Shown: piece by piece, positions 39,709 to 61,256 of the stretch
Numbering within the stretch: position 1 is the stretch's first letter
Layout of the letters: every line of letters begins with the position of its first letter
Virus record (IMG/VR): IMGVR_UViG_3300043540_000321
Location: 62,001 to 126,000 of that record
Origin: a virus
Strand: one strand, 5' to 3'
DNA length: 64,000 nucleotides
Program-made: the position numbers and the translations under genes
The notes under the pieces: generated by a model
Seen by the model: only the letters and a program-made list of their open reading frames with translations
Databases searched by the model: none
Told to the model about the DNA's origin: nothing

Positions 39709-40014
39709 ATGACTATGTATTGTGACCTAGAAATTTATTGGGAAGGGTCTGTAATAGCCCTATTAGACGGAGAAACAGACTTCGTCGAACCCTTTATTAA
39801 AACAGTTCGAGAGATTACGTCGGCTAAGATTGACTGGCACCGCTTCGAAGGAATAGCCCGCGTTCTTTGCCTGGTCGATTCTAAGGAAGAGTGGGACACA
39901 GTCTTCAAAACACTTCTATCCGAATACGATAAGCTGCCTGATAGTCAGAAAGACTTGGTCGACAAAGAGTTAAGGATAATGCGAACACATCCCAATTACC
40001 CAGAAGTCGATTAG
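39709..40014 (+). CDS. Small acidic plus-strand protein
   Basis: A 101-residue protein with a strong ribosome binding site (AAAAGGAG, ten bases upstream). Mixed alpha/beta with many Glu/Asp (WEGSVIALLDGETD, VDSKEEWDTVF) and a conserved-looking C-terminal IMRTHPNYPEVD. No family was recognised. It sits between giant and G genes on the opposite strand and overlaps the giant gene stop by four bases. Confidence 0.65.
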   Translation: MTMYCDLEIYWEGSVIALLDGETDFVEPFIKTVREITSAKIDWHRFEGIARVLCLVDSKEEWDTVFKTLLSEYDKLPDSQKDLVDKELRIMRTHPNYPEVD

Positions 40015-43000: not shown

Positions 43001-46000
43001 TATATAGATGCCCGGCGTCATCGATATCAATATCGAGGTGACGATCAACTTCCGCTTCTATTCGTGTTAGTTGCCGGGTCTTGCGGGCAATATCTTTCTG
43101 AATCCCATGAAGCTCAGCCGCCCGCTTCGTTGTGTTGGTCAGCAAGAATTGGTAGGCGTCCCCATCATAGTCACCAAGCATTGAAAGCAGTCGACCGACC
43201 GCCGGAGCCGCCATCATAGTTCGAGACCGCTCTGTGTTGGGTATCAGCCCACCTCCGGCCTGTCGTACTCTGTCCTGGATAGTCGAAAGGTCTACGGCGT
43301 TATAGACATTCGTTTCGTTTGTCAGTCCGGCTGACCCCGCCGGAGCACCCCCTCTTCGAACGGCCCCTTTCGAAAGGGCCAGCACGTTAGACAGCTCGGA
43401 AGTCCTGCTGTTTAATAAATCCTGTACCCGCGCCTGCGGCAGGTTAGTCATCGCACTGATAGTTGCCGCCTTAAGGTCTAGAACCTGTGTGGCAGATAAC
43501 TTTCTCTCTCGAATGCTCTGCTGGGCACTTTCAAACATCAAATCGAGAGAGTGCCGAGACATGATGCCCGATTTGTCGTCTAGCTCCGGTCCTTTTAACC
43601 CGATCGAGTTAATCAACTTCCGGGTGACTTCCAACATTCGAGCCCCGTGCTCCGGCGATCGCAGGGAACTCTGCTCGATCAGGTTGAACTGAGCGCTGAG
43701 CATCTGCCCAAAGTTCCGATCTTCAACCAAGGCGTGGAACCTCTTGCCCAGTCCCACCTCATCTGGATCCAGGGCAAAAGAACCGACGGCGATGCCAACC
43801 GCACCTTCGAAAGTTTGGCGGTCGCCCATCGCCTTACGAACAAAGTCTGTCCCCAACAAATGGACCAGACCTAAACGACTATTTTCTAAACTATCCTGGA
43901 AGGTCTCTAACTTCCTCTTCTCTGCCTCACTAATGATGGCCCCGGGCTGCATGAGTCGTCCGCGCAATTCCTCTGTCTCAACCAATTGGCGGCGAACGTC
44001 AACTTGGTGGCGCAAACCTTCATCGATATATTGCGGGAAGATGAAGCTGATAGACCGGAGGATGTCCGTTCCCATCAACACACCAAGAGATGGTTTATAG
44101 CGCTGGGGGTCTAAAAGTGAAACGCGATAGCGCCCATCATTTGTAGATTCAAGTGAGAATTTAGGCAGAACAATCTGCTTCGTTGTTCTTACCTCAGATA
44201 GGAGTGCTCTGACCTGTCCATCCCAGGGAACTTTCTCCTGCCTCTCAGATAACTCTGTTTCAAGATGCAGGGCTCCTTCAACGAACTGTTTATAAAGATT
44301 GGTATTTAGGTTTTCTCTAATCGCATTAGCCTGGCGATCGCTAAGCTCCTTCAACCGAGATTGGACCTTACGCCGGATGACTTCATCATCCGAACTCAAG
44401 GGGACACCCACCAGGCGATGACTTCCCTGACTTAATTCGCTAATGACTTTGTAGTGACGCTCAAGCTCTGAGATCGCCCGCCCGCCCTGACCAGACTCAA
44501 CAAAATCTTGGAAGGAGACGGATTCCTCACCGGTAGCTCGTCGGACTCTTCGATCGGCGACAAAACGAGAGTAGGAGTCTGAGACTAACTTTGTGACTAT
44601 CTCCATCGGTGAGAGGCGGCGGTCACCGTCTTTTGCGTACGTCTCACTTAGATGGAGTTGTTTCATTAAGCGCTTCGTCTGCAGCCGGCCCGCCGGGGAG
44701 TCTTGGTCGGAAAAATAAGGTACTCCGTAAGTCCGACTTAAGGTAACGCCCCGTTCTTCAAGGTGGGTCTGCCCTTCCCCGGCAAAGGTCGTAGCTATCT
44801 GCTGCAAATTAATAAATCTTAGGAGGTATCCTCGCTCAGTACCTGGGCGCGTACCAACGCCTCGAATGGCGTCGTTGAGCAGACCCATCTTGTAGCCGAG
44901 AGATGTGTACCCCAGAAGGAATCGTTGAGTATCTAGATGGAATCGACTGGTAAATCCAGGTTCATCTGATGGGAGCGCGAGGCGATACTCCATCGCGGCG
45001 TTTGGGTCTTGCAGTCCGAGAGTCAACGACCCTGACAATACGGCAAATGCTTTATGTACTTGCTGTGCTCCGTCTCCAGCGATCGGCTTGAAGGCTCGCA
45101 GATAGGCTGAACTCAATCCAGTCAGGTATTGATACTCCAGGGCAACTTCGTCTTTGCTGCCCGCAGGAACGAGCGACCTGGAGACAGACATGTCTCGAAG
45201 GTCTTGAATGATGAAATCGTTCTTGATGTGAGCTTGTAAAAGCTCCATCGTCGACTTGACTTTGTGCCGGGGGTCGTCTGGTTTAAGCGACAGGTTTGCG
45301 TTCGCGGCGACCGCGTCCACCATATTGCGATAACCCGGATCGGTGTAGTACCGGTCTATGTCAGATAGATCTTGCTCAAATAAGGTGCCGACACTGGCTC
45401 CTGGAGCCGTAGACCGTCCAAAGATTTGTTTCGATATAAAGGCGGTGTGTGCCAACAGCCCAGCCCCTCGAACGATGAGACTTCCTTCGTTCAGCCCCAC
45501 CCGACCCTGACTGAATCGAATAGAGTGAGCTGGGTCAGAAACAGCCGCCGTAATGAGTTTGCCTGCTTGACGTTTCAGGTGCTTAGAAGCACCTTCATCT
45601 CCCCTCAATGCTTTAATGACAGTCTGCTTCAGGCTAGATAAACTGCCGGTTTGGACATCTTTATCCGCGTTCACACCATCGGCGAGTAGGGTTAGCCCCA
45701 AGGCAACTTTCCCTAAGGTGGATGCCGGACGTCCCTCGTCATCTACTTTGGCAAAGTCGGTGCCCTGAACCATTGCGATCGCATGAGCAACAAACTCTAA
45801 GTTCGACCGTTTCAAATTTCTCTGTAGCTCAGTCTTGACCGTTTCATCCCCCAGAAAAAGAAGGGATAAAGACCGAGCCAGTTCTTGACCCGGAAGACTT
45901 TGTAACGCTTCCCGACTCGATCGCTGACTCAGAAGGTAGATGCCTGACTCATAGTTGAATCCCTTAAAGTGAGAGAACCCAAACAACCCGTAGACCTTTT

Positions 46001-49000
46001 CACCTCGAACAGGCTCTGGCATTAAAGACCCTGGGTCTCGCTTGGAGAAGGTTTGCTGAATGTCTTTGAAGAGAGACTCTTCTATAACGGTGAATGGCCC
46101 CTTAACCAGCCCGGCACCGGCTGGACGCGAGCCACTACCCGCTCTCCACACCGCCATTGCATCAGTAGTAACTGAGATGAGTCCACTCTGAGATACATTA
46201 ACGTGGGGATCTTCGGTAATAACCGAAACACCTTCCTGATGACGTTTGCCGAACGCACCGAATTTTACAGTGAGGGTTTGTCGCCTTCTGCCCCACATCG
46301 TCTCTGCAAATGATGCCGCTTCCTCAAGCTCAATAAGACCTTCGCGACTGAACTGGGCCGTCCTTTGATAATCACCTTTTTCTTGATCATAGTTATAAAG
46401 ACCTTCCTTCAAATAAAGTTTGAGTTCGCCCCGGTCTCGTTTTAAGAGGTAGTGCGCGTAGCGTCCGCCGTCAAACTGCTCCAGCTCTGTCTGGAGTTGG
46501 GTGTCTCGGATGCTTGGATTTTCGGCTGTCCTCTCAGCTAGAAGTTGAGATACCCTTTGATTCTCTGCTTCAATAGGAGCCCCGATGACTACACTGCCCT
46601 TCGCGAGATAACGGCTGAGTATACCAATAGTCTCAGTTTGAGACTTAATCTGCTTACTTGAGACTTTAACCGTGACTCGTTGAGGGTCGCCCAGGTCAAG
46701 CTTGTAGCCTGAGTTAACCCAGCTCGAGTCGCCCACTAATGAGACTCCTCCAATAAGAGCAACTCGCTTCATAGCCCTGGGACCTATAACCCCGTGGTAA
46801 GCGTTGTTTGGGTCCATCTCAGCCTGGCGGAAGTACTCTTGAACCTTCTCGAAATCTCCGTTGTATTGAGACGCTACTCTCTTAACCTCTGCAAACTGCA
46901 TAGCGGGGAGAACTTCACGAAGGCGACCAGACACCAGAGAGTCAGCCTTCAACTCTGCCACGCTATGAGAGAGCGATCGCACCTTATCGGCCATCTCACT
47001 ACTGATATCGATGGCTGGGCGGCTGCCTCCCACGTTCTTCAAACGTTGTGGGATCTGTTCGGGTTTCGGGAAGGGGAGCAAGAACATCGTGTCTTGCTCC
47101 TCGGTGATTGCCTGGGCCGATCGCTTACTGACTAATAAAGTCTGGAGTTGCTGAACCTCCTTTGACCACTGCTCTCGACTAACAGAAGCTAGACCGGCAG
47201 TGCCCTTCAAGAACTTTTCCATGTCATGGGCCGTCGCCGCTCCGATGCTGATGTCAGAGTCCACCACCGTTAGCTGTCTTAGCCCGCCATACGCTGTAAT
47301 CTTCAGCGGTTTTGCTTGAGTCACCGCACCTACCGCTCGGTAGAACTCCCCTGCTTCTCCCAGACGAGTACCAGACTTCACCTCAGCCGGGTCTAAGACA
47401 CCGGCTGCAATAACTCGGTCATAGGTCGTGTCTAATGGGAATTTACTCTCTTGAGAGTAAACTGGCAGACGAGCCACTGCTTGCAGCCCCGAGTATCCAA
47501 GCTCGTGAGCAGCCAGGAAGGGAGCCGCCAGGTCAGAGACAATTCGATAGGTCTGAGTGGACTGGGCCGCGAAGAACTTTCTTCGGTTCTCATCGGAACG
47601 AAGGAGAAGTTTTAACTTCAGGTCTTGGAAGAGATTCTGCTCATCGAGAAGAAGGACATCCGTCAATCGATGCTGAGCGAACAAATCTCCCTGGTGTTGA
47701 AGGAGCTCATCGAAAACGACCCGGAGATAATTCTGTCGCTTGGAAAAGTCCGCCTCGGACAGCGTGCGCGTGTAATCTTCTATTGGAGAATCGACTCCTG
47801 CTGCCAACACCCGCTGCGCCTGGTACACAGTAGATGAAGGGGAGATTCCTAATTCTTTAGACGCGGACTTAATACCAGACATCATCGTCCGCAGGTTCGC
47901 TCGTCCCTGTCCGGACTCGACAGCCTGGGCTACTTCTGGAGCAACCATCGCCAAAGATTCCGCGATGATGTCGCGTGCCGCCGCATGTAAATCTCCCGGA
48001 CGCTCCTGAACCATTCGGTTGAACAGAGAGTTCACCAGAGAGTATCTGGACTGATAGCTCAGCTCTCGAGACACCGTAGCTATGAAGGACACGGCAGTCT
48101 CCATTCCAGAAAGTTGGGTAGACTTTCCAGGTTGAATCTTACGTCCGAACAGAGAGATAGGAGAGGACGATTTGTTCGCAAAGACAGACCCAGGAATGAG
48201 CTTGTTCTGATCGACCAGGATTACGTTTCCGTGGCGATCGACTGTCAAGTTGATTATGAGAGAGCCGGATATGGAGTCAACACCTCGAACACGAACCTTC
48301 AGTCCAGTCTGTGAAGCTGGGGAGTCTGGGCCGGTCTTAAGAGTGTATCGCCCCTCAACCTCGATGACTGAGCCTCCAATTTCACGATTCAGTTTCTCCA
48401 GAGCTTGTCGGAGCTGCTCCACCTGAGAGACGTCCGCGTTACGCTCAGCCAAGAATCCCGTCTTGTATAACGTCTGCCCGCGGTCCATCTTTTTGAGCAG
48501 GTCGCCCGCAGATAGCACGTTATAGTGCTGCTCCAGTTTTGACTTCTGCTTCAACTCCTGCAGATAGCCGTCCGGGTCCAGCCGTTTCTGAACTGGGCGG
48601 TGCTCGTCGCGATAGCGGCCCGCACCAACTGCGACTACCGTGTCCAGGTTGATGGGAGATTCTGGGTCGAAATCTGTGAACGTTCGCTTCGCTGCATTCA
48701 GAGCGTTATTAAAATATTCATCCTGGAAGCGATTGAGCTGCGAGACTGGAATCAATGAATCGGCGGAGAAGTTTGCAGACCCCACACTTAAGAACATCAA
48801 CTTCTGGTCAGTCCCTCCAAAAATTGAGATGGATTTGTCATGTTGATAGCCCGTCGTCGCCGTCCGGATCGAACCCGTGTCTATGAGCAGTCGAATAAAG
48901 GTCTCATCAACTCCAAGTGCCTGCGTGCTCCCTCCAAACTTTGCATCTCGAAGTGAGTCGAAGAACCCAGACAGCCGAGAGTTATCGGTAACGATCGTCA

Positions 49001-50198
49001 GTCGCTTCTGCTCTGCCAGAGTACGAACCGCCTGGATCAAGTCCTGAGCATACCCTCTCGATCTCAATATGAGACTCAACTCGCCCATTGAGATAACAAC
49101 CTGATCGCCGTTGGCGACTGAGTTTGGATCGAATGCAGCCGTTCTCAATGCACTGGTGATGCGACCGTAAATCTCGGACTCCACGTAGAGGAACCCCCGA
49201 CTGGTGCCGTCGGCTGCCATCTGTTTTCTGAGACCACCGGGCTGGTAAGAGAACTGCTGAGTCGACCTCGCCATCCGAGTAATCGTGTCAGTCAACGTCA
49301 TGATCTCGCCAGCGATCGCTGCTTCCGTCTGTGTCGACCGCTCCGTCTCAGAGCTAAGAGCATTCCGCGTTGATGGTCGATTGAAGACCATCAGGGTCTC
49401 AAGCGAGTTGTTGTTCGCCAGGGCGGGCGTGATGTTCTGGGAACCGATGAACGCTCGATATCCTCTGCGATCGTCTCCGGCATAACCGATCTTCGGGTGG
49501 AAGGAGGCTGTTGCATCCACTCCAACGATCGGACTCTCCTGGAGTCCACGTTGTTGTTGAAGTAGCTGGCCGACATCCAGTGAGAGTCGGTTTCCAGCGA
49601 GGATCTGCCCAGTCGTCTCCCAGTCCTTCCGAACCGTTGCCGGATCGCCTGGAGCATATCTCAAGTCCTGCGTGACGATCGACCAGGGACTCCTGCGGCT
49701 CGTTAGAGAAGAGACGATAGACTCCTGTTGAAACTGAAAGAAGACTGCTTGCAGCGTACCCGGCTGGAAGAGGGCACGGTACTCCTCAACACCTGGTCGT
49801 GGTATGAACCCGGTGGGTGGGGTATGTGCCTGACCTGCCAGTTGAGACGGGCGGGCAAAGTTATTGACGGTGGGAGCCGAATTTATTAAACGCTGGGCCA
49901 GACCTGAAAAGACCTGCCCCGCCTGTTGAGAAGGTCTTTGAAAAGAAGTTGCCTGAGTGTCTGCGATAATGCCCAGACCATCCCTGGCAAAGCGTTGAGT
50001 GATCCGGAATGGGTCGCCCTGCTCCGTCTGCAGATAGTCCGAGACAAAGTCGTCAACGGGTGAGGTGAAGGCTGACCGAGTACCGCCGTACCCGGCAGGC
50101 GGAGTGTCTGGACTACCCTCCGACCCAGACTGAGACTCGGGGTTGAGAGGTAGCCCTTCTTCGTCATACCCACCGTAAGGAAGCTCTTCTTCGTCCAT
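40011..50198 (-). CDS. Giant virion protein: phospholipase-D-like N-terminus and DxDGD polymerase-like motif
   Basis: At 3395 residues this is by far the largest gene. After an acidic tip, a short duplicated element (FQRPSQQAGQ about 87, FARPSQLAGQ about 114) precedes a phospholipase-D-like domain with H234-P-K236/GSQN (252-255) and H453-D-K455/GSAN (473-476). The long middle is helical and charged. At 2343-2347 lies DYDGD in the context LGDYDGDAYQFLL, like the Mg-binding loop of two-barrel RNA polymerases (QDE-1, YonO, crAss-phage polymerase; bacterial beta-prime NADFDGD). The C-terminus has hydrophobic, perhaps membrane-active, segments (AFTAPLLLAAAGAGAK). A virion-packaged injected polymerase and/or tape-measure is inferred; only one polymerase motif is seen, so this remains a hypothesis. 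It starts three bases after the small gene upstream. Confidence 0.85.
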   Translation of the reverse strand: MDEEELPYGGYDEEGLPLNPESQSGSEGSPDTPPAGYGGTRSAFTSPVDDFVSDYLQTEQGDPFRITQRFARDGLGIIADTQATSFQRPSQQAGQVFSGLAQRLINSAPTVNNFARPSQLAGQAHTPPTGFIPRPGVEEYRALFQPGTLQAVFFQFQQESIVSSLTSRRSPWSIVTQDLRYAPGDPATVRKDWETTGQILAGNRLSLDVGQLLQQQRGLQESPIVGVDATASFHPKIGYAGDDRRGYRAFIGSQNITPALANNNSLETLMVFNRPSTRNALSSETERSTQTEAAIAGEIMTLTDTITRMARSTQQFSYQPGGLRKQMAADGTSRGFLYVESEIYGRITSALRTAAFDPNSVANGDQVVISMGELSLILRSRGYAQDLIQAVRTLAEQKRLTIVTDNSRLSGFFDSLRDAKFGGSTQALGVDETFIRLLIDTGSIRTATTGYQHDKSISIFGGTDQKLMFLSVGSANFSADSLIPVSQLNRFQDEYFNNALNAAKRTFTDFDPESPINLDTVVAVGAGRYRDEHRPVQKRLDPDGYLQELKQKSKLEQHYNVLSAGDLLKKMDRGQTLYKTGFLAERNADVSQVEQLRQALEKLNREIGGSVIEVEGRYTLKTGPDSPASQTGLKVRVRGVDSISGSLIINLTVDRHGNVILVDQNKLIPGSVFANKSSSPISLFGRKIQPGKSTQLSGMETAVSFIATVSRELSYQSRYSLVNSLFNRMVQERPGDLHAAARDIIAESLAMVAPEVAQAVESGQGRANLRTMMSGIKSASKELGISPSSTVYQAQRVLAAGVDSPIEDYTRTLSEADFSKRQNYLRVVFDELLQHQGDLFAQHRLTDVLLLDEQNLFQDLKLKLLLRSDENRRKFFAAQSTQTYRIVSDLAAPFLAAHELGYSGLQAVARLPVYSQESKFPLDTTYDRVIAAGVLDPAEVKSGTRLGEAGEFYRAVGAVTQAKPLKITAYGGLRQLTVVDSDISIGAATAHDMEKFLKGTAGLASVSREQWSKEVQQLQTLLVSKRSAQAITEEQDTMFLLPFPKPEQIPQRLKNVGGSRPAIDISSEMADKVRSLSHSVAELKADSLVSGRLREVLPAMQFAEVKRVASQYNGDFEKVQEYFRQAEMDPNNAYHGVIGPRAMKRVALIGGVSLVGDSSWVNSGYKLDLGDPQRVTVKVSSKQIKSQTETIGILSRYLAKGSVVIGAPIEAENQRVSQLLAERTAENPSIRDTQLQTELEQFDGGRYAHYLLKRDRGELKLYLKEGLYNYDQEKGDYQRTAQFSREGLIELEEAASFAETMWGRRRQTLTVKFGAFGKRHQEGVSVITEDPHVNVSQSGLISVTTDAMAVWRAGSGSRPAGAGLVKGPFTVIEESLFKDIQQTFSKRDPGSLMPEPVRGEKVYGLFGFSHFKGFNYESGIYLLSQRSSREALQSLPGQELARSLSLLFLGDETVKTELQRNLKRSNLEFVAHAIAMVQGTDFAKVDDEGRPASTLGKVALGLTLLADGVNADKDVQTGSLSSLKQTVIKALRGDEGASKHLKRQAGKLITAAVSDPAHSIRFSQGRVGLNEGSLIVRGAGLLAHTAFISKQIFGRSTAPGASVGTLFEQDLSDIDRYYTDPGYRNMVDAVAANANLSLKPDDPRHKVKSTMELLQAHIKNDFIIQDLRDMSVSRSLVPAGSKDEVALEYQYLTGLSSAYLRAFKPIAGDGAQQVHKAFAVLSGSLTLGLQDPNAAMEYRLALPSDEPGFTSRFHLDTQRFLLGYTSLGYKMGLLNDAIRGVGTRPGTERGYLLRFINLQQIATTFAGEGQTHLEERGVTLSRTYGVPYFSDQDSPAGRLQTKRLMKQLHLSETYAKDGDRRLSPMEIVTKLVSDSYSRFVADRRVRRATGEESVSFQDFVESGQGGRAISELERHYKVISELSQGSHRLVGVPLSSDDEVIRRKVQSRLKELSDRQANAIRENLNTNLYKQFVEGALHLETELSERQEKVPWDGQVRALLSEVRTTKQIVLPKFSLESTNDGRYRVSLLDPQRYKPSLGVLMGTDILRSISFIFPQYIDEGLRHQVDVRRQLVETEELRGRLMQPGAIISEAEKRKLETFQDSLENSRLGLVHLLGTDFVRKAMGDRQTFEGAVGIAVGSFALDPDEVGLGKRFHALVEDRNFGQMLSAQFNLIEQSSLRSPEHGARMLEVTRKLINSIGLKGPELDDKSGIMSRHSLDLMFESAQQSIRERKLSATQVLDLKAATISAMTNLPQARVQDLLNSRTSELSNVLALSKGAVRRGGAPAGSAGLTNETNVYNAVDLSTIQDRVRQAGGGLIPNTERSRTMMAAPAVGRLLSMLGDYDGDAYQFLLTNTTKRAAELHGIQKDIARKTRQLTRIEAEVDRHLDIDIDDAGHLYKMSSLSEQAEILRGELETHYQQLTEGIEEVNKNSLHLDRTPSRALKDVRKWVGSYVAFPDFIINNEQKVSTGTLMAMVQQLSGTMPQIEDARSHLHKTEERLAALQKFFDPLQGGVPFSPELSGLEKDARFSQLPEDIRSQWSALTTHSRSDTLEGFLSKSRDYFAFQANVAMGVEQINKSLKKAAGTIVNPFEMEGLQATIGQAGTELIGKTYNVLIPLLDRAIMGQSISAGLQTTGAESFKQTLDTNLLAMQQREGDVRRRKEIRGLREKLMDNTSSLRGMLLENYSGTVGTLGTMQQLIRDALKEKSEKGLIGILRQADANGKPLSQLIEEAETDRDRIDLIKKVVSTRLGPDISTPPGLEGTAARLREGQVHDPGITGFGALLRLAEFAMSDDETDLHKRFVEQPGLEKEYRRARLSRRASNVADFAALQIQGLLERSQAAFISSTLSSDFKQFYVDQLRDFHAEADSNKLSGIDRQYYDLVSEYEQQRSATSDLGQLNERLVQESTLLKIQHRNKEFGVLSVDQIKGLRESFQATSRVRFGSGDITERMIGANIDTYNAYIRMLQRGQQLMPSDALYMAYYKLAEFQGLRGYDQLSAMSPTNQQRAAQLMGVGLPGLSRGEQAILTEAMLTSPGGRTPLAVLQKTSGAISQGVYGLFDQLESLGSLHEQDENSIRYAESMRRQLAGIYEHGEINFDKVQQMGVVRTTPEANQVLRNVQEKLTELSAAPLDRKTPVENLRAMEKSERHASMFGAFTAPLLLAAAGAGAKFDDRMWQFGFDTLQAVAMLSSQKDTATAQLSGHSQDAAVAFSLSRIKNSMATEGFMLGAVQGFTQETMFAGINAVSHALVDKLSGRTHETPSGKSALLTVGAEVLSTIASLSIARGATQQRTLIGEYIPDRVGDLLEEAGEQVDRTEMELRDIFSQQQEYEVLDTDDNQRIDFDISAIPTQLEQDIMGGLVVINDESTPIATEFEDTASRRAELMGTVSDSYS

Positions 50199-54726: not shown

Positions 54727-55464
54727 ATGAAGAAATTTATCGCGGCTATCATCGCCTTTGTTTCCATCATTTCCCTTGCCCTTCCTATTGCAGGACTGTA
54801 TGGGCTGATTCCTTTCCCAGTACCTTCGGCGGTCGCCGCTACAACTCCGGCTGAGTCACCTAAACCAGAAGTGACAGCCAACCCAGTTGAACTGACCGAA
54901 GAGGACAAGGCGGCTATGGAGAAGCAACTGAACACTTTGTTCATTCCAATGAGTCAGATCATCGCCCAGGCAAAGTTTGATGCCAAAGTGGATATGACAC
55001 TGGCTACAGACACCAACCCACTCGGCGAGAAGAAATTCAAAGATAACGAATGCGTTCTTCGTTACCCAGCCGGTGTTGCGGTCGCTCAAGCACTCAGTCA
55101 AGCCCAACAAGGAGGATACGAGGTCACCCTTCGAGATTGCTACCATGCGAGCAGCATCAGCAAAGAGCTGAACACCCTGCTCCCAGAGTTGTATCCCGAT
55201 GGCGAAAACTCCTCTTACTCCAAGGCACTGACTGTAGACTTGAGTCTGTCTAAAGACGGCAAGTCTTTAGACATGGGCAGCGAGTACAATGTCCTTCCCA
55301 CTGGCGATCTCACTGATGAGCAGAAGGCTAACCAGAAGATTCTGGCAGACCTGTTTGCTGGGACAAACATGACTCAGGATGAGAAGGCCTGGTGGAGGTT
55401 CACCCTTCAAAGTTTGAACAGTTCGGATAATCCCGACATCAAAGCTCTGGATCTTCCTGTCTAG
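54727..55464 (+). CDS. VanX/VanY-like paralogue without catalytic residues (pseudoenzyme)
   Basis: A 245-residue secreted or membrane-anchored protein (signal helix IAAIIAFVSIISLALPIAGL, then a Pro-rich linker). It aligns by eye with the dipeptidase gene at 56319: RDCYHASS (137-143) to YDCYRPHS, SSYSKALTVDLSLSKDGKSL to SNHNRGTAVDVGLYKEGQEL, and KAWWRFTL to TEWWHFDF. The zinc ligands (H to Y164, H to R224), catalytic Glu (to A221) and substrate Arg (to H140) are all replaced; the Asp ligand (D171) remains. It probably binds, but does not cut, a cell wall peptide, or controls the active enzyme. Confidence 0.8.
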   Translation: MKKFIAAIIAFVSIISLALPIAGLYGLIPFPVPSAVAATTPAESPKPEVTANPVELTEEDKAAMEKQLNTLFIPMSQIIAQAKFDAKVDMTLATDTNPLGEKKFKDNECVLRYPAGVAVAQALSQAQQGGYEVTLRDCYHASSISKELNTLLPELYPDGENSSYSKALTVDLSLSKDGKSLDMGSEYNVLPTGDLTDEQKANQKILADLFAGTNMTQDEKAWWRFTLQSLNSSDNPDIKALDLPV

Positions 55465-55539: not shown

Positions 55540-56307
55540 ATGAGTTTAATCCTGACAATCCTTGTGATCCTTATCGCAATGTCCGTTCATGAGTTCGGAC
55601 ATTTTATACCCGCAAAGTTATTCGGCTGCAGAGTGTACGAATACTCTATTGGGGCTGGCCCAGCGCTAATTAAAAAGAAGTGGGGAGAAACGATTTACTC
55701 TATTCGCCCTGTACCGATCGCTGCCTATGTGTATATCAACCAGGACGACCTAAACGGTCAGCCTTACTGGAAGACCGCCGTCATCCTTTTAGGAGGAGTA
55801 ACCGGGAATATTTTGTTGGCCTATTTAGGCTGCTACCTCCTGTTCACAATAGTTGGCTACTCTCCGATTGAAGCGATTAAAGGCGGTTTCGACGAGCTTG
55901 GTCAGTTTCTATCGTGGCAGGGGAACAGTATGCTGAGCCTGCTGAAAGCTCCTCTAAAATCTGTAGCTGACTTAGAAGGTCCAATTGGAATTATCAAATC
56001 GGGCTCAAAAACTATAGGTGCAACCGTAACTCTCAATGGAGTCAAGACATCCTGGCTGAACCGAACTCTTATCAGCACGATCGTCTTCTCCAATTTTATC
56101 AACGTCGCTCTCGCCTACTTCAATTTATTACCGGTGCCTGTCCTGGATGGAGGGCGGTTTCTGGTGAGAACGATAGAGGCAATCATCCGTAGAAAACTAC
56201 CCGAAAAGGTGACGGTAGGCGCACTGTATTTCGGTGGTTTTATGGTGCTGGGATTATTTATGTTCACGACTCTTAAAGACGTGGCGAATCTGTTTATTCA
56301 TAGATAA
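55540..56307 (+). CDS. Site-2 protease-like intramembrane metalloprotease (M50)
   Basis: A 255-residue polytopic membrane protein. The zinc-binding motif HEFGH (17-21) lies in the first membrane helix, and the second motif PVPVLDGGRF (D203) in a later one, the characteristic pair of the M50/S2P family. LLGGVTGNILLAYLG and LFMFTTLKDVANLFI are further membrane helices. A good ribosome binding site (AAGAGAAG) is present. It is between the two VanX-like genes. In bacteria such enzymes cut membrane-anchored regulators. In a phage the gene is unusual; release of the neighbouring membrane-anchored proteins is one possibility. Confidence 0.88.
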   Translation: MSLILTILVILIAMSVHEFGHFIPAKLFGCRVYEYSIGAGPALIKKKWGETIYSIRPVPIAAYVYINQDDLNGQPYWKTAVILLGGVTGNILLAYLGCYLLFTIVGYSPIEAIKGGFDELGQFLSWQGNSMLSLLKAPLKSVADLEGPIGIIKSGSKTIGATVTLNGVKTSWLNRTLISTIVFSNFINVALAYFNLLPVPVLDGGRFLVRTIEAIIRRKLPEKVTVGALYFGGFMVLGLFMFTTLKDVANLFIHR

Positions 56308-56318
56308 AAGGAAATATC

Positions 56319-56981
56319 ATGGGCCTACTTTTAAGATTTGGTGGGATTTGTCTTCTTGCCATCCTTATTGCGATTTACGCAACGCCTCCTAAGAGAGTGA
56401 AGACCCTCAACCCGAAGTTGGCGTCCCCCCTAGCCCCTGCCAAAAAGATTATTAATAAATCCCTGGTCGATGTTGGAGACCTGGTGCCGACGGCTCGAAT
56501 TGCCATGAAGTACGCCACCACGGATAACTTCACTGGAACTCAGTTATATAAGAATGCGCGTTGCCTCGTAGTGCAACCTACCGCGATCGCTCTGGCTGCT
56601 GCTCAGAAAAGAGCAGAACAGCAGGGGCTAAGTCTCGTATTCTACGACTGCTACAGACCTCACTCAGTCCAGCAACAAATGTGGGCTAAGGTACCTGACT
56701 CGCGGTATGTGGCTAACCCAAACCCAGGCTCAAATCATAACCGAGGTACAGCCGTGGACGTTGGGCTGTATAAGGAAGGTCAGGAGCTCGATATGGGCTC
56801 GCCTTTCGACTCGTTCGCTGAACAGTCGCACCGTAATGCCAGAATCACAACGGAGCAACAAAAGAACCGAGATTTACTTAAAGAAATTATGGGTCCGCAG
56901 TTCACCACCGTTCAGACGGAGTGGTGGCACTTCGATTTTGTCGGGGCAAAGAATTACCCCGTACTAAACGACCCGCTATAA
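56319..56981 (+). CDS. D-Ala-D-Ala dipeptidase/carboxypeptidase (VanX family), membrane-anchored
   Basis: A 220-residue protein. An N-terminal hydrophobic helix (GGICLLAILIAIYA) directs it to the periplasm. It has the family's zinc site: SNHNRGTAVD (H140, D147) and EWWHF (catalytic E201, H204), plus the substrate-binding Arg in YDCYRPHS (R113). It would cut D-Ala-D-Ala or cell wall peptides, fitting a lysis function. A ribosome binding site (AAGGAAA) is present, eleven bases after the protease gene. Confidence 0.9.
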   Translation: MGLLLRFGGICLLAILIAIYATPPKRVKTLNPKLASPLAPAKKIINKSLVDVGDLVPTARIAMKYATTDNFTGTQLYKNARCLVVQPTAIALAAAQKRAEQQGLSLVFYDCYRPHSVQQQMWAKVPDSRYVANPNPGSNHNRGTAVDVGLYKEGQELDMGSPFDSFAEQSHRNARITTEQQKNRDLLKEIMGPQFTTVQTEWWHFDFVGAKNYPVLNDPL

Positions 56982-57794: not shown

Positions 57795-58355
57795 ATGTTA
57801 CTCAGTGATAAGCCTTTTGTTATAGACAGAGGCAATGTACAGGCTATGAAAGCACATAGCCAGATAGGTAAACAGCGAGCCGCTCAAGGTCTCGAGGATT
57901 GGAATACACCTGAGGAGCTGAGAGGCAAAGAGGTTGAGCAATGTGTAGCTCGATTGTTAAATACCTGCTTGCAGGTAGACCAGGTAAAGCGAGCTAATAG
58001 GGGGTCTGTCTTAGATGACGAGGTCAAGGTTGACCTCCTAGTCTATGTAGGGAATGAGGTACAGGGGTTCCAAGTAAAGACTTCTCAAGCGGCAGCAGAG
58101 AGGTTTCATATGGAACACCCTGAAGTTCCATGTATCTGGTATGCAGGAACTAATAGACTCCAGCTCTGTGTAGCCATCGCTCAACTGCTTCACACAAAGA
58201 TGAAGCCAGTAGTTAAGAACGCTCTAATGAAGTTCGACCTACTGAAGTCTAAGAAAGTTAGCAATCCATCCGCACTGAGAAACCTCTTCAGTAAAGACGA
58301 GCAAACAGTCTGTGTTGTACTCGGACTACTTACTGAAAGAGCGTTTTCTAGCTAA
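57795..58355 (+). CDS. PD-(D/E)XK nuclease-like protein
   Basis: A 186-residue protein with a ribosome binding site GGAGAG. GKEVEQCVARLL carries candidate acids E46/E48, then VKVDLLV gives D80 and GFQVKTS gives Q93-x-K95, the E...D...QxK layout of the PD-(D/E)XK nuclease fold (Holliday junction resolvases, restriction-like enzymes). The C-terminal part is helical and basic. It starts the operon with ribozyme leaders. Substrate and role (recombination, host DNA degradation) are unknown. Confidence 0.65.
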   Translation: MLLSDKPFVIDRGNVQAMKAHSQIGKQRAAQGLEDWNTPEELRGKEVEQCVARLLNTCLQVDQVKRANRGSVLDDEVKVDLLVYVGNEVQGFQVKTSQAAAERFHMEHPEVPCIWYAGTNRLQLCVAIAQLLHTKMKPVVKNALMKFDLLKSKKVSNPSALRNLFSKDEQTVCVVLGLLTERAFSS

Positions 58356-58361
58356 CCCATA

Positions 58362-58388
58362 TAGGGGAAGACCAATAGTCTTCCCCTA
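58362..58388 (+). terminator. Perfect hairpin abutting ribozyme copy 1
   Basis: TAGGGGAAGAC (58362-58372) pairs fully with GTCTTCCCCTA (58378-58388), loop CAATA. The next base begins stem III of the ribozyme fold. There is no T-run, so it may serve as a 3-prime end structure after ribozyme cleavage rather than a classical terminator. Confidence 0.7.
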
Positions 58389-58440
58389 CTCCGTCGCTGG
58401 GTATTGGTAGCCCAGCTTGAAAAGTTACTTCGAAACGGAG
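58389..58440 (+). ncRNA. Type III hammerhead ribozyme-like fold, copy 1 (variant core)
   Basis: Stem III is CTCCGT/ACGGAG (58389-58394 and 58435-58440); the site is GTC with C17 at 58395; stem I is GCTGGG/CCCAGC (58396-58401, 58411-58416); the core reads TTGAAAA where CTGANGA is canonical (C3U and G8A, which could still pair as U-A); GAAA is at 58432-58435. The stem I loop GGTA (58406-58409) can pair with TACT (58426-58429) of the stem II loop. ACGGAG of stem III overlaps the ribosome binding site of the 58447 gene. Activity is uncertain because of the core changes. Confidence 0.7.
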
Positions 58441-58446
58441 GATTTT

Positions 58447-58656
58447 ATGGACAGCAAACTACTACAACTAATCGCCCTTTCTCAAACTACTGAAGTTGAT
58501 ACGACTCAAACGGTCTATCAACTCAAAGTTAAAGGAATTCCCTGTGGACTCTTTAACGAGATAGGCGATGCAGAAAACGCAGCCGAAGACGCTGGGTTCG
58601 ATTGTCGCGACTACCAAATAGTCGTCTTCTCAGAACCGGACGTTAAAGCCTGCTAA
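58447..58656 (+). CDS. Small hypothetical protein
   Basis: A 69-residue acidic protein from the ATG at 58447, five bases after a CGGAGG ribosome binding site; the frame is open from a TTG inside the ribozyme fold but that is not used. It has a small alpha/beta pattern (QTVYQLKVKGIPCGLF, ENAAEDAGFDCRDYQIVVF) that resembles a ferredoxin-like or DNA-mimic mini-protein; no family is recognised. A similar start pattern (xxLPAEG...) is seen in the next gene, so they may be distant relatives. Confidence 0.65.
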   Translation: MDSKLLQLIALSQTTEVDTTQTVYQLKVKGIPCGLFNEIGDAENAAEDAGFDCRDYQIVVFSEPDVKAC

Positions 58657-58661
58657 GACTT

Positions 58662-58689
58662 AGTCCTGCGATCGAACGATCGCAGGACT
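58662..58689 (+). terminator. Perfect hairpin abutting ribozyme copy 2
   Basis: AGTCCTGCGATCG (58662-58674) pairs fully with CGATCGCAGGACT (58677-58689) around AA. It stands one base before stem III of copy 2. It includes a HIP1-like GCGATCG half and ends without a T-run. Confidence 0.7.
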
Positions 58690-58690
58690 T

Positions 58691-58744
58691 CTCCGTCGCT
58701 GGGTCTGGTAGCCCAGCTATGACAAGTTACCAAACGAAACGGAG
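58691..58744 (+). ncRNA. Type III hammerhead ribozyme-like fold, copy 2 (degenerate core)
   Basis: Stem III CTCCGT/ACGGAG (58691-58696, 58739-58744), GTC with C17 at 58697, stem I GCTGGG/CCCAGC (58698-58703, 58712-58717) and GAAA are kept. The core reads TATGACAA: an inserted base, C3 to A and G8 to A compared with CTGANGA. The loop TGGTA (58706-58710) pairs fully with TACCA (58728-58732). The fold is preserved more than the catalytic core, so it may be inactive and act only as structure. Confidence 0.62.
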
Positions 58745-58751
58745 GTCTATT

Positions 58752-59060
58752 ATGGCTACCACAACAACAGTTGCAACCGTAAATGAACTTAACTATCTGT
58801 CTGCTCGCCTGCGTGCAGAAGGGTTTGTCGTTAAAGTTCATAAGCTTGAGCAGGGTTGGGAGCTGACACTTTCCGAAGGCGGAAGGCCAAGCTCATTTCA
58901 ACCCAAACAAACGGAAACCGGTGAGGAGATTATCTTCTTTAACCTATCCGAGTTTAAGCGAGGTGAGGCAATGGCTGCCGATCTTCGCGAGCAAGGAATT
59001 GCTTGCAAGTTCGCTAAAGCCAAGAGTGGCAGATGTTGGTATCTCAAAAGACTTGCATAG
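58752..59060 (+). CDS. Small hypothetical protein
   Basis: A 102-residue protein from the ATG at 58752 with CGGAGG in front; the frame opens earlier at an ATG within the ribozyme fold (58719), which is rejected as start. Two similar halves are visible: LSARLRAEGFVVKVHK and MAADLREQGIACKFAK, each followed by a strand ending in Trp (GWELTLS, RCWYLKR), suggesting a duplicated small alpha/beta unit. The function is unknown. Confidence 0.65.
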   Translation: MATTTTVATVNELNYLSARLRAEGFVVKVHKLEQGWELTLSEGGRPSSFQPKQTETGEEIIFFNLSEFKRGEAMAADLREQGIACKFAKAKSGRCWYLKRLA

Positions 59061-59076
59061 TCTACAACAAAACAAA

Positions 59077-59112
59077 CAAAAGAGGAGCTGAAAACAGCTC
59101 CTCTTTTGTTTT
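59077..59112 (+). terminator. Strong intrinsic terminator
   Basis: CAAAAGAGGAGCTG (59077-59090) and CAGCTCCTCTTTTG (59095-59108) form a perfect 14 base pair stem with loop AAAA, followed by TTTT. It contrasts with the three other hairpins because it has the T-run and no ribozyme downstream. Confidence 0.85.
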
Positions 59113-59124
59113 AAGGAGGTCATT

Positions 59125-59283
59125 ATGTTGGAAGCAATCTTGATGGATTTAGCAATTGAATTAGTTGTTGATTGCGTGTTAGGTGCTGTTATTGCAGATG
59201 CTGAATTAGGAATTCTTGAACCTTTCGTCAGTGAAGGGGTAAAGGAGCTCGCTAAGAAGATCTACAAGAATCGCAAAGGCTGA
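59125..59283 (+). CDS. 52-residue hypothetical protein
   Basis: The ATG at 59125 follows an AAGGAGG ribosome binding site at 59113-59119, and the stop TGA is at 59281-59283. The protein is helical with a hydrophobic N-terminal part (LMDLAIELVVDCVLGAVIA) and a basic C-terminus (KKIYKNRKG), so it may be membrane-associated. No family was recognised. Confidence 0.68.
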   Translation: MLEAILMDLAIELVVDCVLGAVIADAELGILEPFVSEGVKELAKKIYKNRKG

Positions 59284-59289
59284 ATTTAT

Positions 59290-59317
59290 AGGGCAGAGAA
59301 AGTAATTTCTCTGCCCT
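59290..59317 (+). terminator. Perfect hairpin abutting ribozyme copy 3
   Basis: AGGGCAGAGAAA (59290-59301) pairs fully with TTTCTCTGCCCT (59306-59317), loop GTAA. The next base starts stem III of copy 3; the T's that follow belong to that stem. Six bases separate it from the preceding stop. Confidence 0.7.
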
Positions 59318-59373
59318 GTTTTGGTCGCTGGGTATTAGTAGCCCAGCCTGACGAGTTACTACGAAACCAAAAC
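59318..59373 (+). ncRNA. Type III hammerhead ribozyme, copy 3 (canonical core)
   Basis: Stem III GTTTTGGT/ACCAAAAC (59318-59325, 59366-59373), cleavage site GTC with C17 at 59326, stem I GCTGGG/CCCAGC (59327-59332, 59342-59347), core CTGACGA (59348-59354), a one-pair stem II with loop TTACTA, and GAAA (59363-59366). The stem I loop TAGTA (59336-59340) pairs with TACTA (59357-59361). All residues required for catalysis in the hammerhead family (C3, G5, A6, G8, A9, G12, A13, A14, C17) are present. Cleavage would occur between 59326 and 59327, leaving the downstream mRNA with a structured 5-prime end. Confidence 0.85.
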
Positions 59374-59390
59374 AAAGCGAGGACAAGATT

Positions 59391-60050
59391 ATGTTGACAA
59401 CTACAAATCTCCAACAACTGAATACTCTGACCGTTATCGTTCTTGAAGCTCAGAACACGGCTGACAATCTACGCCGGAGAGCTATTCGATCGATGACCAA
59501 CTACGACAATTGGACCGCGATTGCATTTGCAGCAGACTGGGCAGAACTAGATAGGAAAGCATACGCTGCCCTGTTCAATAGAAAGAATTACGACTTGCTG
59601 TGCAGCGCGATCGCCCTGGTCGTAACCATCTTCTGGACATGCTACGTGTCTGCGTGTGAAGCGATTGAATACCTGGCTGAAACGACTTCTCCGGTTGCGC
59701 CCAGTGTCTACTACTTCAGCCCACTCTATGTGATGGACCTGGATGACTATGAGGAACTTACTTGCGACCTATGGGCACCACCTGAACTGGATGAAAAGCT
59801 GGTCTGTGATGTTTGGGAGCTCGTTGAAGTCGAACCACTACCGACGGCAAATCCAGATGTAGAGGTTGCGATCACTGTCCAAACAAGTCTTTATCTCCTG
59901 CCGGCTGCTCCTGTTGAAGTTAATGATGTTGAGGATGAAAAGACGACAGTAGCGACTAAGCAGAAGAGGGCAAGCTCGAAGGCAAAAAAGTCCAGCCCAA
60001 AGGGAAAGTCGAGAACTTCCAAATCGAAGTCGACGAAACAGTGTGCATGA
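59391..60050 (+). CDS. Membrane protein with histone-like basic C-terminus
   Basis: A 219-residue protein with a CGAGG ribosome binding site 12 bases upstream. One membrane helix (LLCSAIALVVTIFWTCYV, about 68-86), an acidic middle (DLDDYEELTCDLWAPPELDE), and a 30-residue basic tail of Lys/Ser/Arg (KRASSKAKKSSPKGKSR) that could bind nucleic acid or anionic lipid. The combination is unusual. Its leader has the canonical hammerhead. Function unknown. Confidence 0.68.
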   Translation: MLTTTNLQQLNTLTVIVLEAQNTADNLRRRAIRSMTNYDNWTAIAFAADWAELDRKAYAALFNRKNYDLLCSAIALVVTIFWTCYVSACEAIEYLAETTSPVAPSVYYFSPLYVMDLDDYEELTCDLWAPPELDEKLVCDVWELVEVEPLPTANPDVEVAITVQTSLYLLPAAPVEVNDVEDEKTTVATKQKRASSKAKKSSPKGKSRTSKSKSTKQCA

Positions 60051-60089: not shown

Positions 60090-61256
60090 ATGGCTACCAA
60101 CAATTTTGACCAATCAACCCTGTCGATCGTTGATGAACTCTTCAAGTCCTTGTTCAAGGAAGAAGATACAACGATTGAAGTCGCTGGCCGCAAATTTAGG
60201 CCAGCGGTCCTAAAACGGAATACGCTCAACCTTAGCGACGTTCCCAGGACAGTCCGGGAAACATTCTCTTTCCACAAAGACTCGATTGTTCAGCCCAGGG
60301 AACGGGGTCGGCACTCTATCATCGTCACGCTCCTCTCTATGAGGTTCTCTGACGATGGTCAGATGCTGGTTGCAGCTCCTTCTATCCAAGCCGCCACCTA
60401 TAGCGGAACATCTAAGATGTTGCCTGTAGGTGACTGGAACCAGAAGGCGGTACTCACAGGGCGGGACCTTTTCATTCAAGCGGATTTTATGAGCTCGGAT
60501 GATGGTCTCACTATTCTCAACCCTGTTGTTCTGAAACGTCCGTACCCAGCCGGTAAAGATGATGGAAACGTCTCCGTCATGCTGTGCGGTTCGAACAAGA
60601 CAGATAGCAACTGGAAGGAAAAGCACAACCATGCTCGAGACGAATTTAGGAAGGCAGCACTCAATGTTGCCCAGAGGTTAGGCGTCCCTTCCGGAGAACA
60701 GTTCATCATTTGCCTTGTTGGATTTCCGGTTAGGTCGGGAGAAAACAACGGTGAGACTGATTCGTTCTGGGGAGCCATCTTAGAAGGCGGTTACCTTCTG
60801 GGTGGTCGGCGCATCAACCGTGTTAGTAAGGCTCCAGACCCGAACGGCAAGCTAGGTGGTTTGAGAATCTCCTCAGATTTCCAAGTCACCTCCTGTAAAA
60901 CCGTGGCTCAAATGCTCGAAGAACAGTTAGCTGCTCAGTTAGCTACTCGATCTGTTCAGGTCGATCCTAAGTCTGAACCTGAACCTGAGCCAGTGCTTGA
61001 ACAACCTGAACCTGAACCTGAACCTGAACCTGAACCTGAACCTGAACCTGAACCCGTGGTTGAGCCTTCTCAACCACGGCGAGAAAGTCTCTTAGAGAAG
61101 TTGGGTCCGATAACCAATGACTCTGATGAATTTCAACTTCTCGAAGAGTCCTCGGACGATGAGGAAGAAGTGTTCATGGGCAGGGTCGGAAGCATCGCTG
61201 AATTGCTGAAAACCAATATCAAACCGGGCAGAGAGGATAATCCCTTCTGCCCTTAA
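60090..61256 (+). CDS. Hypothetical protein with Glu-Pro repeat
   Basis: A 388-residue protein with a strong AAGGAGG ribosome binding site. A beta-rich domain (1-280: VAGRKFRPAVLKRN, FSFHKDSIVQPRERG, EQFIICLVGFPVRSG) is followed by a Glu-Pro repeat about 300-335, then an acidic C-terminal part (LLEESSDDEEEVFMG) ending in a helix. No family was recognised. The repeat probably is an extended linker. Confidence 0.68.
   Translation: MATNNFDQSTLSIVDELFKSLFKEEDTTIEVAGRKFRPAVLKRNTLNLSDVPRTVRETFSFHKDSIVQPRERGRHSIIVTLLSMRFSDDGQMLVAAPSIQAATYSGTSKMLPVGDWNQKAVLTGRDLFIQADFMSSDDGLTILNPVVLKRPYPAGKDDGNVSVMLCGSNKTDSNWKEKHNHARDEFRKAALNVAQRLGVPSGEQFIICLVGFPVRSGENNGETDSFWGAILEGGYLLGGRRINRVSKAPDPNGKLGGLRISSDFQVTSCKTVAQMLEEQLAAQLATRSVQVDPKSEPEPEPVLEQPEPEPEPEPEPEPEPEPVVEPSQPRRESLLEKLGPITNDSDEFQLLEESSDDEEEVFMGRVGSIAELLKTNIKPGREDNPFCP
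61005..61052 (+). repeat. Eight tandem CCTGAA hexamers encoding Pro-Glu
   Basis: Eight perfect CCTGAA units in a row, flanked by degenerate units. They encode the Pro-Glu linker of the preceding entry and are likely to vary in number by slippage. Confidence 0.9.

What the first reader, a model, noticed from the sequence alone, without database searches (positions are those of the whole stretch)
58362..59373. Three consecutive gene leaders built from a hairpin plus a type III hammerhead ribozyme fold
At 58389, 58691 and 59318 the same fold appears: stem III, GTC, stem I GCTGGG/CCCAGC, core, short stem II, GAAA, stem III. Stem III covaries (CTCCGT/ACGGAG in two copies, GTTTTGGT/ACCAAAAC in the third), and the stem I loop pairs with the stem II loop with compensating changes (TGGTA/TACCA versus TAGTA/TACTA). 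Each fold is directly preceded (0, 1 and 0 bases) by a perfect 11-13 base pair hairpin with different sequence, and followed by a ribosome binding site and a small gene. This looks like ribozyme punctuation of a polycistronic phage mRNA: cutting would give the upstream RNA a hairpin-protected 3-prime end and the downstream RNA a structured 5-prime end. Hammerheads are known in all domains, including phages, but repeated use as operon punctuation coupled to abutting hairpins is, to my knowledge, not described.
Basis: partly seen in the sequence, partly recalled or inferred. Interest (0 to 1): 0.92.

Follow-up and report, generated by a model that had tools for sequence, protein, structure and literature searches.

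The report
Three hammerhead ribozymes between phage genes
A large cyanobacterial virus carries three small self-cutting RNAs, each squeezed between the end of one gene and the start of the next, where they probably chop one long message into separate ones; similar arrays are known from other phages, but these belong to a phage branch that the standard RNA library misses, and two of the three have rewired catalytic cores.

Summary
A covariance model built only from 33 unrelated phage hammerheads finds exactly three sites in the 195-kb record, at 59321 (E=6e-21), 58390 (7e-18) and 58692 (7e-10). They are type III hammerheads with a very short stem II and a loop I/loop II pseudoknot. Rfam misses them at its cut-off (RF00008: 18 bits against 48.5). 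Copy 1 has C3U+G8A, a swap of the tertiary 3-8 pair. Copy 2 has G8A plus one inserted base. Other phages carry the same swap (L206; L195 with an insertion), and one carries A3-U8 (L268). The phage is a contractile-tailed cyanophage, remotely related to Microcystis phage Ma-LMM01. Each unit reads stop codon, hairpin, ribozyme, ribosome-binding site, start codon. Ribozyme punctuation of phage mRNAs, in tandem, was already proposed and partly tested (Perreault 2011), so that novelty claim fails. The abutting hairpin recurs in unrelated phages: 18 of 45 at the exact boundary, against 0-3 at shifted positions. Similar hairpins follow 32% of gene ends without a ribozyme, so it looks like an ordinary gene-end hairpin, precisely placed. 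Unmasking of the ribosome-binding site by cleavage is only weakly supported. Cleavage could not be tested.

The parts
57795..58355 (+). gene upstream of copy 1 (186 aa; no family match; contains a D...QVK signature reminiscent of PD-(D/E)XK nucleases, by eye only)
   Evidence: no relatives
58362..58388 (+). perfect 11-bp hairpin TAGGGGAAGAC/GTCTTCCCCTA, 6 nt after the upstream stop, abutting stem III of copy 1; no U-tract
58389..58440 (+). hammerhead copy 1 (type III); cleavage predicted between 58395 and 58396; core TTGAAAA (C3U + G8A); stem III 3' strand ACGGAG overlaps the ribosome-binding site
   Evidence: E=7e-18
58447..58656 (+). small gene after copy 1 (69 aa, unknown)
58662..58689 (+). 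perfect 12-bp hairpin AGTCCTGCGATC/GATCGCAGGACT abutting copy 2
58690..58745 (+). hammerhead copy 2; cleavage predicted between 58697 and 58698; core TATGACAA (one inserted base + G8A); stem III 3' strand ACGGAGG contains the ribosome-binding site
   Evidence: E=6.6e-10
58752..59060 (+). gene after copy 2 (102 aa, unknown)
59074..59111 (.). 17-bp terminator-like hairpin between the copy 2 gene and the next gene
59125..59283 (+). small gene (52 aa) before copy 3, with its own AAGGAGG ribosome-binding site
59290..59317 (+). perfect 12-bp hairpin AGGGCAGAGAAA/TTTCTCTGCCCT abutting copy 3
59317..59374 (+). hammerhead copy 3; cleavage predicted between 59326 and 59327; consensus core CTGACGA...GAAA; pseudoknot TAGTA/TACTA
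   Evidence: E=6e-21
59391..60050 (+). gene after copy 3 (219 aa, unknown)

Best explanation
Three paralogous type III hammerhead ribozymes sit as leaders in a forward-strand gene cluster of a cyanophage. Shown: the fold, the loop-loop pseudoknot, the core grammar and the placement (upstream stop codon, hairpin, ribozyme, ribosome-binding site, start codon). Inferred: each self-cleaves in the transcript after C17, at 58395, 58697 and 59326. That would leave the upstream mRNA ending in a stable hairpin plus a 7-9 nt tail with a 2',3'-cyclic phosphate, and the downstream mRNA starting with a 5'-hydroxyl directly at the 7-bp stem I hairpin. Such ends should resist 3' exonucleases and 5'-end-dependent RNases (general knowledge of RNA decay, not tested here), so neighbouring genes become separate messages with independent lifetimes. 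Copy 3 should cut fast, copy 1 measurably (its 3-8 pair is swapped to U-A), and copy 2 slowly or only under some conditions.
For: A model made without these copies finds them at E = 6e-21, 7e-18 and 7e-10 and nothing else in 195 kb. In the 33 relatives 98% of pair cells are paired, 13 of 17 pairs change on both sides, and none of 500 shuffles reaches the covariation score; this includes pseudoknot pairs 17-40 and 19-38. The changed cores recur elsewhere with pairing kept at positions 3-8: U-A in L206, U-A with an insertion in L195, A-U in L268. U3-A8 is reported as a natural covariation, and such cores as active in vitro (PMC3088659). 48 of 56 sites have an ORF start within 60 nt downstream. 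Seven of 30 other phage contigs have two or more R1 matches, one of these second matches being weak. A triple phage-type array is self-cleaving in vitro and in E. coli (PMC3088659).
Against: No cleavage or RNA data. In the predicted fold of copy 1 a 5-bp helix made from core bases competes with the active fold (the program ignores the pseudoknot). Insertions at the stem I/C3 junction strongly slow other hammerheads (PMC3088659), so copy 2 may be dead. A terminator-like hairpin lies between copies 2 and 3, and no promoter match was found on the + strand. Close relatives of this locus were not found, so conservation of the array in its own lineage is unknown.
Confidence: 0.72

Rival explanations
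1. Ribosome-binding-site gate: in copies 1 and 2 stem III holds the Shine-Dalgarno sequence, so the gene is translated only after the ribozyme has cut and the 5' strand of stem III has left.
For: Shine-Dalgarno sequence inside stem III in copies 1 and 2 and in 14 of 56 sites overall. In Vibrio phage Phriendly the depositors' own ribosome-binding-site annotation (1546-1549) overlaps the matched ribozyme (1496-1548).
Against: Calculated accessibility of the site rises only from 0.20 to 0.36 (copy 1) and 0.05 to 0.24 (copy 2) on cutting; in 12 other such sites the mean goes from 0.36 to 0.45. Copy 3 and most relatives have the site outside stem III. Short leaders make some overlap likely anyway.
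Confidence: 0.2
2. Structural leaders only: the folds (at least copies 1 and 2) no longer cut and serve as mRNA-stabilising 5' structures, or are decaying duplicates of copy 3.
For: Two of three cores depart from consensus; some core variants and insertions are poorly active or inactive (PMC3088659).
Against: Stem III, pseudoknot, GAAA, A15.1-U16.1 and C17 are all kept in copies 1 and 2, and the 3-8 changes keep pairing (copy 2 if its U is read as position 3), which decay would not favour; the same variants occur in unrelated phages.
Confidence: 0.2
3. The hairpins are (leaky) transcription terminators of the upstream genes, and the ribozymes merely trim the read-through message.
For: The phage has 30 perfect hairpins with arms of 10 bp or more, many of them 2-25 nt after a stop codon, against 0-3 in shuffles. 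In the related contigs, hairpins follow 37 of 114 gene ends without a ribozyme.
Against: No U-tract follows the hairpins of copies 1 and 2, and only a partial one follows that of copy 3. This view is compatible with the main explanation rather than opposed to it.
Confidence: 0.35

Closest known systems
Clustered phage and prophage hammerhead ribozymes (Perreault et al. 2011, PMC3088659)
   Same: Tandem hammerheads flanking single small genes; loop I/stem II pseudoknots; stem II of one or two pairs; U3-A8 core covariation; proposed cutting of phage transcripts into gene-length mRNAs; a triple array cleaves in vitro and in E. coli.
   Different: Here all three are type III with an abutting upstream hairpin, two of the three cores are changed, and the carrier is a large cyanophage.
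Rfam RF00008 Hammerhead_3 (type III hammerhead)
   Same: Same topology and core for copy 3; the only ribozyme family that Rfam reports there at a relaxed threshold.
   Different: 18 bits for copy 3 and 27.9 for L023 against a cut-off of 48.5; the short stem II and pseudoknot loops score poorly in that model.
Pseudoknot hammerhead, crystal structure 8YDC (PMC11300833)
   Same: A pseudoknot between the stem I side hairpin loop and the stem II region stands in for a full stem II.
   Different: That RNA is a designed two-strand construct with stem II replaced by the pseudoknot; here a G10.1-C11.1 pair is kept and the RNA would act in cis.
Saltern hammerheads with insertions 2a/2b (PMC3088659)
   Same: Inserted bases between stem I and the core, as in copy 2.
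   Different: Copy 2 has one inserted base together with G8A, keeping a possible U3-A8 pair.

Membership tests
Type III hammerhead ribozyme | Three-way junction with stem III open-ended and stems I and II closed | tested here: met
   All three copies; covariation in relatives:
Type III hammerhead ribozyme | Consensus core CUGANGA ... GAA | tested here: inconclusive
   Met in copy 3 (CTGACGA). Not met in copy 1 (TTGAAAA) or copy 2 (TATGACAA), where C3-G8 becomes U-A; U3-A8 is a reported natural variant
Type III hammerhead ribozyme | A15.1-U16.1 pair and H at position 17 | tested here: met
   GTC / GAAAC in all three copies
Type III hammerhead ribozyme | Tertiary contact between loop I and loop II | tested here: met
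   Pseudoknot TGGTA/TACCA (copy 2), TAGTA/TACTA (copy 3), about three pairs in copy 1; covarying pairs in relatives
Type III hammerhead ribozyme | Self-cleavage 3' of nucleotide 17 in Mg2+ | not testable with these tools
   needs in vitro transcription
Rfam RF00008 Hammerhead_3 | Score at or above the curated gathering cut-off (48.5 bits) | tested here: not met
   No match at gathering cut-off in the window; 18 bits for copy 3 when searched alone
Tandem phage hammerhead arrays (mRNA punctuation) | Two or more hammerheads on one strand flanking individual genes | tested here: met
   Three within about 1 kb; 7 of 30 other contigs have two or more matches
Tandem phage hammerhead arrays (mRNA punctuation) | Cleavage of the polycistronic transcript in cells | not testable with these tools
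   needs RNA from infected cells

The most novel reading that the evidence does not exclude
A recurrent phage expression unit in which a gene-end hairpin and a hammerhead are fitted edge to edge, so that self-cleavage makes a hairpin-protected 3' end and a 5'-hydroxyl, hairpin-capped 5' end in one step, with cleavage rate (and so message dosage) tuned gene by gene through compensated changes of the core 3-8 pair and junction insertions.
Probability: 0.25. Interest if true: 0.72.

Novelty: new member of a known kind. Interest (0 to 1): 0.48.

Why it matters
What bacterial and phage hammerheads are for is still an open question (PMC6155905). This locus gives a natural side-by-side test: a consensus, a pair-swapped and an inserted core in the same 1-kb gene cluster, each between a gene-end hairpin and a start site. 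The relatives outline a phage branch of type III hammerheads that the standard RNA library misses at its cut-off, and add natural covariation (U3-A8, and A3-U8 in L268) at the active-site pair whose position 8 supplies the general acid.

Tried and rejected
Rfam at gathering cut-off for the window and ten relatives: no hammerhead; a relaxed search of a 4-kb stretch also missed it, while short stretches did show RF00008 below cut-off. A hairpin specific to the ribozyme: rejected as a frequency claim, because gene ends without a ribozyme carry hairpins nearly as often (37/114 against 18/45) and with the same lack of U-tract; only the exact juxtaposition stands out. Ribosome-binding-site unmasking as the main function: weak by calculation. 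Horizontal spread of a fixed ribozyme cassette: the same stem I and nearly the same loop occur in L003, L014, L023 and the window, but conserved columns leave few free bases, so coincidence cannot be excluded; not claimed. Relatives of the locus: proteins at 57795 and 60090 gave none; Ma-LMM01 and the Microcoleus phage lack model matches, and MaMV-DH01 gives only a marginal one (E = 0.05). Of 107 contigs holding the bare variant-core pattern only two sites (L195, L206) proved to be hammerheads; the rest look like chance.

Full report
1. What is there. The window is bases 62001-126000 of a 195,211-base virus record. Terminase, tail sheath, portal and head protease families match its proteins. 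The nearest named phages by terminase and sheath are Microcystis phage Ma-LMM01, its relatives and Microcoleus phage My-WqHQDG, at about 30-34% identity, so it is a contractile-tailed cyanophage without close relatives in that collection. The three elements lie on the + strand, outside the structural gene block (- strand), between small genes with no informative family match.

2. The folds. Copy 1 (58389-58440), copy 2 (58690-58745) and copy 3 (59317-59374) have stem III open, then U16.1-C17, a 7-bp stem I with loop ATTGGTA (ATTAGTA in copy 3, CTGGTA in copy 2), the core, a stem II of one to three pairs, GAAA, and stem III closing. Folding energies are far below shuffles (z = -6.3, -5.4, -6.4, hairpins included).

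3. Relatives. Pattern scans of viral contigs and one of genome contigs yielded 53 distinct sites outside the window that pass fold filters (one search lists 56 with the window copies). An alignment of 33 of them, without the window copies, is almost gap-free: nnnGTCGnnnGGCATTGGTAGCCnnnCCTGAnGAGTnACCACGAAACnnn. Stem III is 100% paired with all four Watson-Crick types at three positions, stem I is 99.6% paired, and the loop-loop pseudoknot 92%, with changes on both sides at two of its pairs. The covariation score is 0.743 against 0.159 for shuffles and at most 0.10 for slid controls. The sites were gathered by patterns that fix most of the core and part of loop II, so the conserved columns are partly a product of the search; stems I and III were required to pair by my filter, so their pairing percentages are inflated, but the variety of pair types and the pseudoknot changes were not imposed pair by pair. 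The covariance model R1 then finds the window copies at E = 6e-21, 7e-18 and 6.6e-10 and nothing else in the record. This is an out-of-sample confirmation for the window, with rough E-values.

4. The cores. Copy 3 is consensus. Copy 1 has C3U and G8A, the two bases that pair with each other in the active structure; the swap to U3-A8 was reported as a natural covariation, and such cores as active in vitro (PMC3088659). L206 shows the same swap in another phage. L195 has a swap plus one inserted base, as copy 2 does (copy 2 reads U-A-UGACAA, so U3-A8 with an inserted A is one reading). L268 has A3 and U8, a third pairing combination. Among sites that look like real members, none without an insertion had a change at only one of the two positions. 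Insertions at this junction slowed a saltern hammerhead strongly, so copy 2 is the least certain.

5. The unit. Stop codon to hairpin is 4-6 nt, hairpin to ribozyme 0-1 nt, and A15.1 to start codon 12, 13 and 25 nt. Over all sites 48 of 56 have an ORF start within 60 nt, and in about half of the hairpin-bearing ones the hairpin starts within 10 nt of an upstream stop. At the exact boundary, 18 of 45 stem-I-distinct relatives have a strong hairpin (score 9 or more), against 0-3 at each of twelve shifted positions and 3.75% at random sites; at score 12 or more it is 12 of 45 against 0.55% at random sites. But gene ends without a ribozyme in the same contigs have such hairpins in 37 of 114 cases somewhere in 60 nt, equally without U-tracts, and the window phage has 30 perfect hairpins, many just after stop codons. 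I conclude that the hairpin is a general gene-end element and that the ribozyme is placed precisely at its foot.

6. Arrays. Of 30 other phage contigs searched whole, seven have two or more R1 matches, one of them resting on a weak second match that I do not trust (L014, 10442). Some members of these arrays (L055 copies b and c, L282, L249, L017) read by eye as type II permutations with the same stem I and pseudoknot grammar; tandem arrays of several hammerhead types are what Perreault et al. described.

7. Mechanism. Most likely the ribozymes separate neighbouring messages and fix both new ends (best explanation; cutting and end protection are inferred). Ribosome-site gating in copies 1 and 2 is possible but weak by calculation. 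Whether all three act on one transcript is open because of the hairpin at 59074-59111 and the lack of promoter matches on the + strand.

8. Known or new. Punctuation by tandem phage hammerheads was proposed, and cleavage of a triple array shown in vitro and in E. coli, in 2011. In the library held here I found no account of hairpins abutting the ribozymes, but that library is partial and I read only a few papers. I file the finding as a new member of a known kind with two unusual cores.

Noticed in passing
L055 (contig range 1743-9388), L282, L249, L017: Arrays that appear to mix or consist of type II permuted hammerheads, each before a small gene, using the same stem I/pseudoknot grammar as the type III family.
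   Followed up: partly
L268, - strand, near 2187: Hammerhead with core ATGATTA: A3-U8 in place of C3-G8, with complete stems and pseudoknot.
   Followed up: partly
L348 1496-1548 (Vibrio phage Phriendly, MN062185): Related element in a cultured phage of Vibrio natriegens, with an extra base in the core (CTGAATGA); the deposited ribosome-binding-site annotation overlaps it.
   Followed up: partly
L023 285-337 (- strand): Rfam Mu-gpT-DE RNA (RF03012) in the same contig as a hammerhead; it too ends in a ribosome-binding site and ATG.
   Followed up: no
whole record G000, mainly window coordinates 55247 onward: 30 perfect hairpins with arms of 10 bp or more (0-3 in shuffles), many just after + strand stop codons and most without U-tract; a few contain GCGATCGC-like palindromes familiar from cyanobacteria.
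   Followed up: partly
window 54727-55464 and 56319-56981: Two genes of the peptidase M15 (D-Ala-D-Ala dipeptidase) family on either side of a gene (55540-56307) that looks by eye like a site-2-protease type membrane protein (MSVHEFGH).
   Followed up: no
window 40011-50198 (- strand): A single ORF of 3,395 codons next to the structural genes.
   Followed up: no
window 60966-61070: Glu-Pro repeat inside the gene 60090-61256 (GAACCT units).
   Followed up: no
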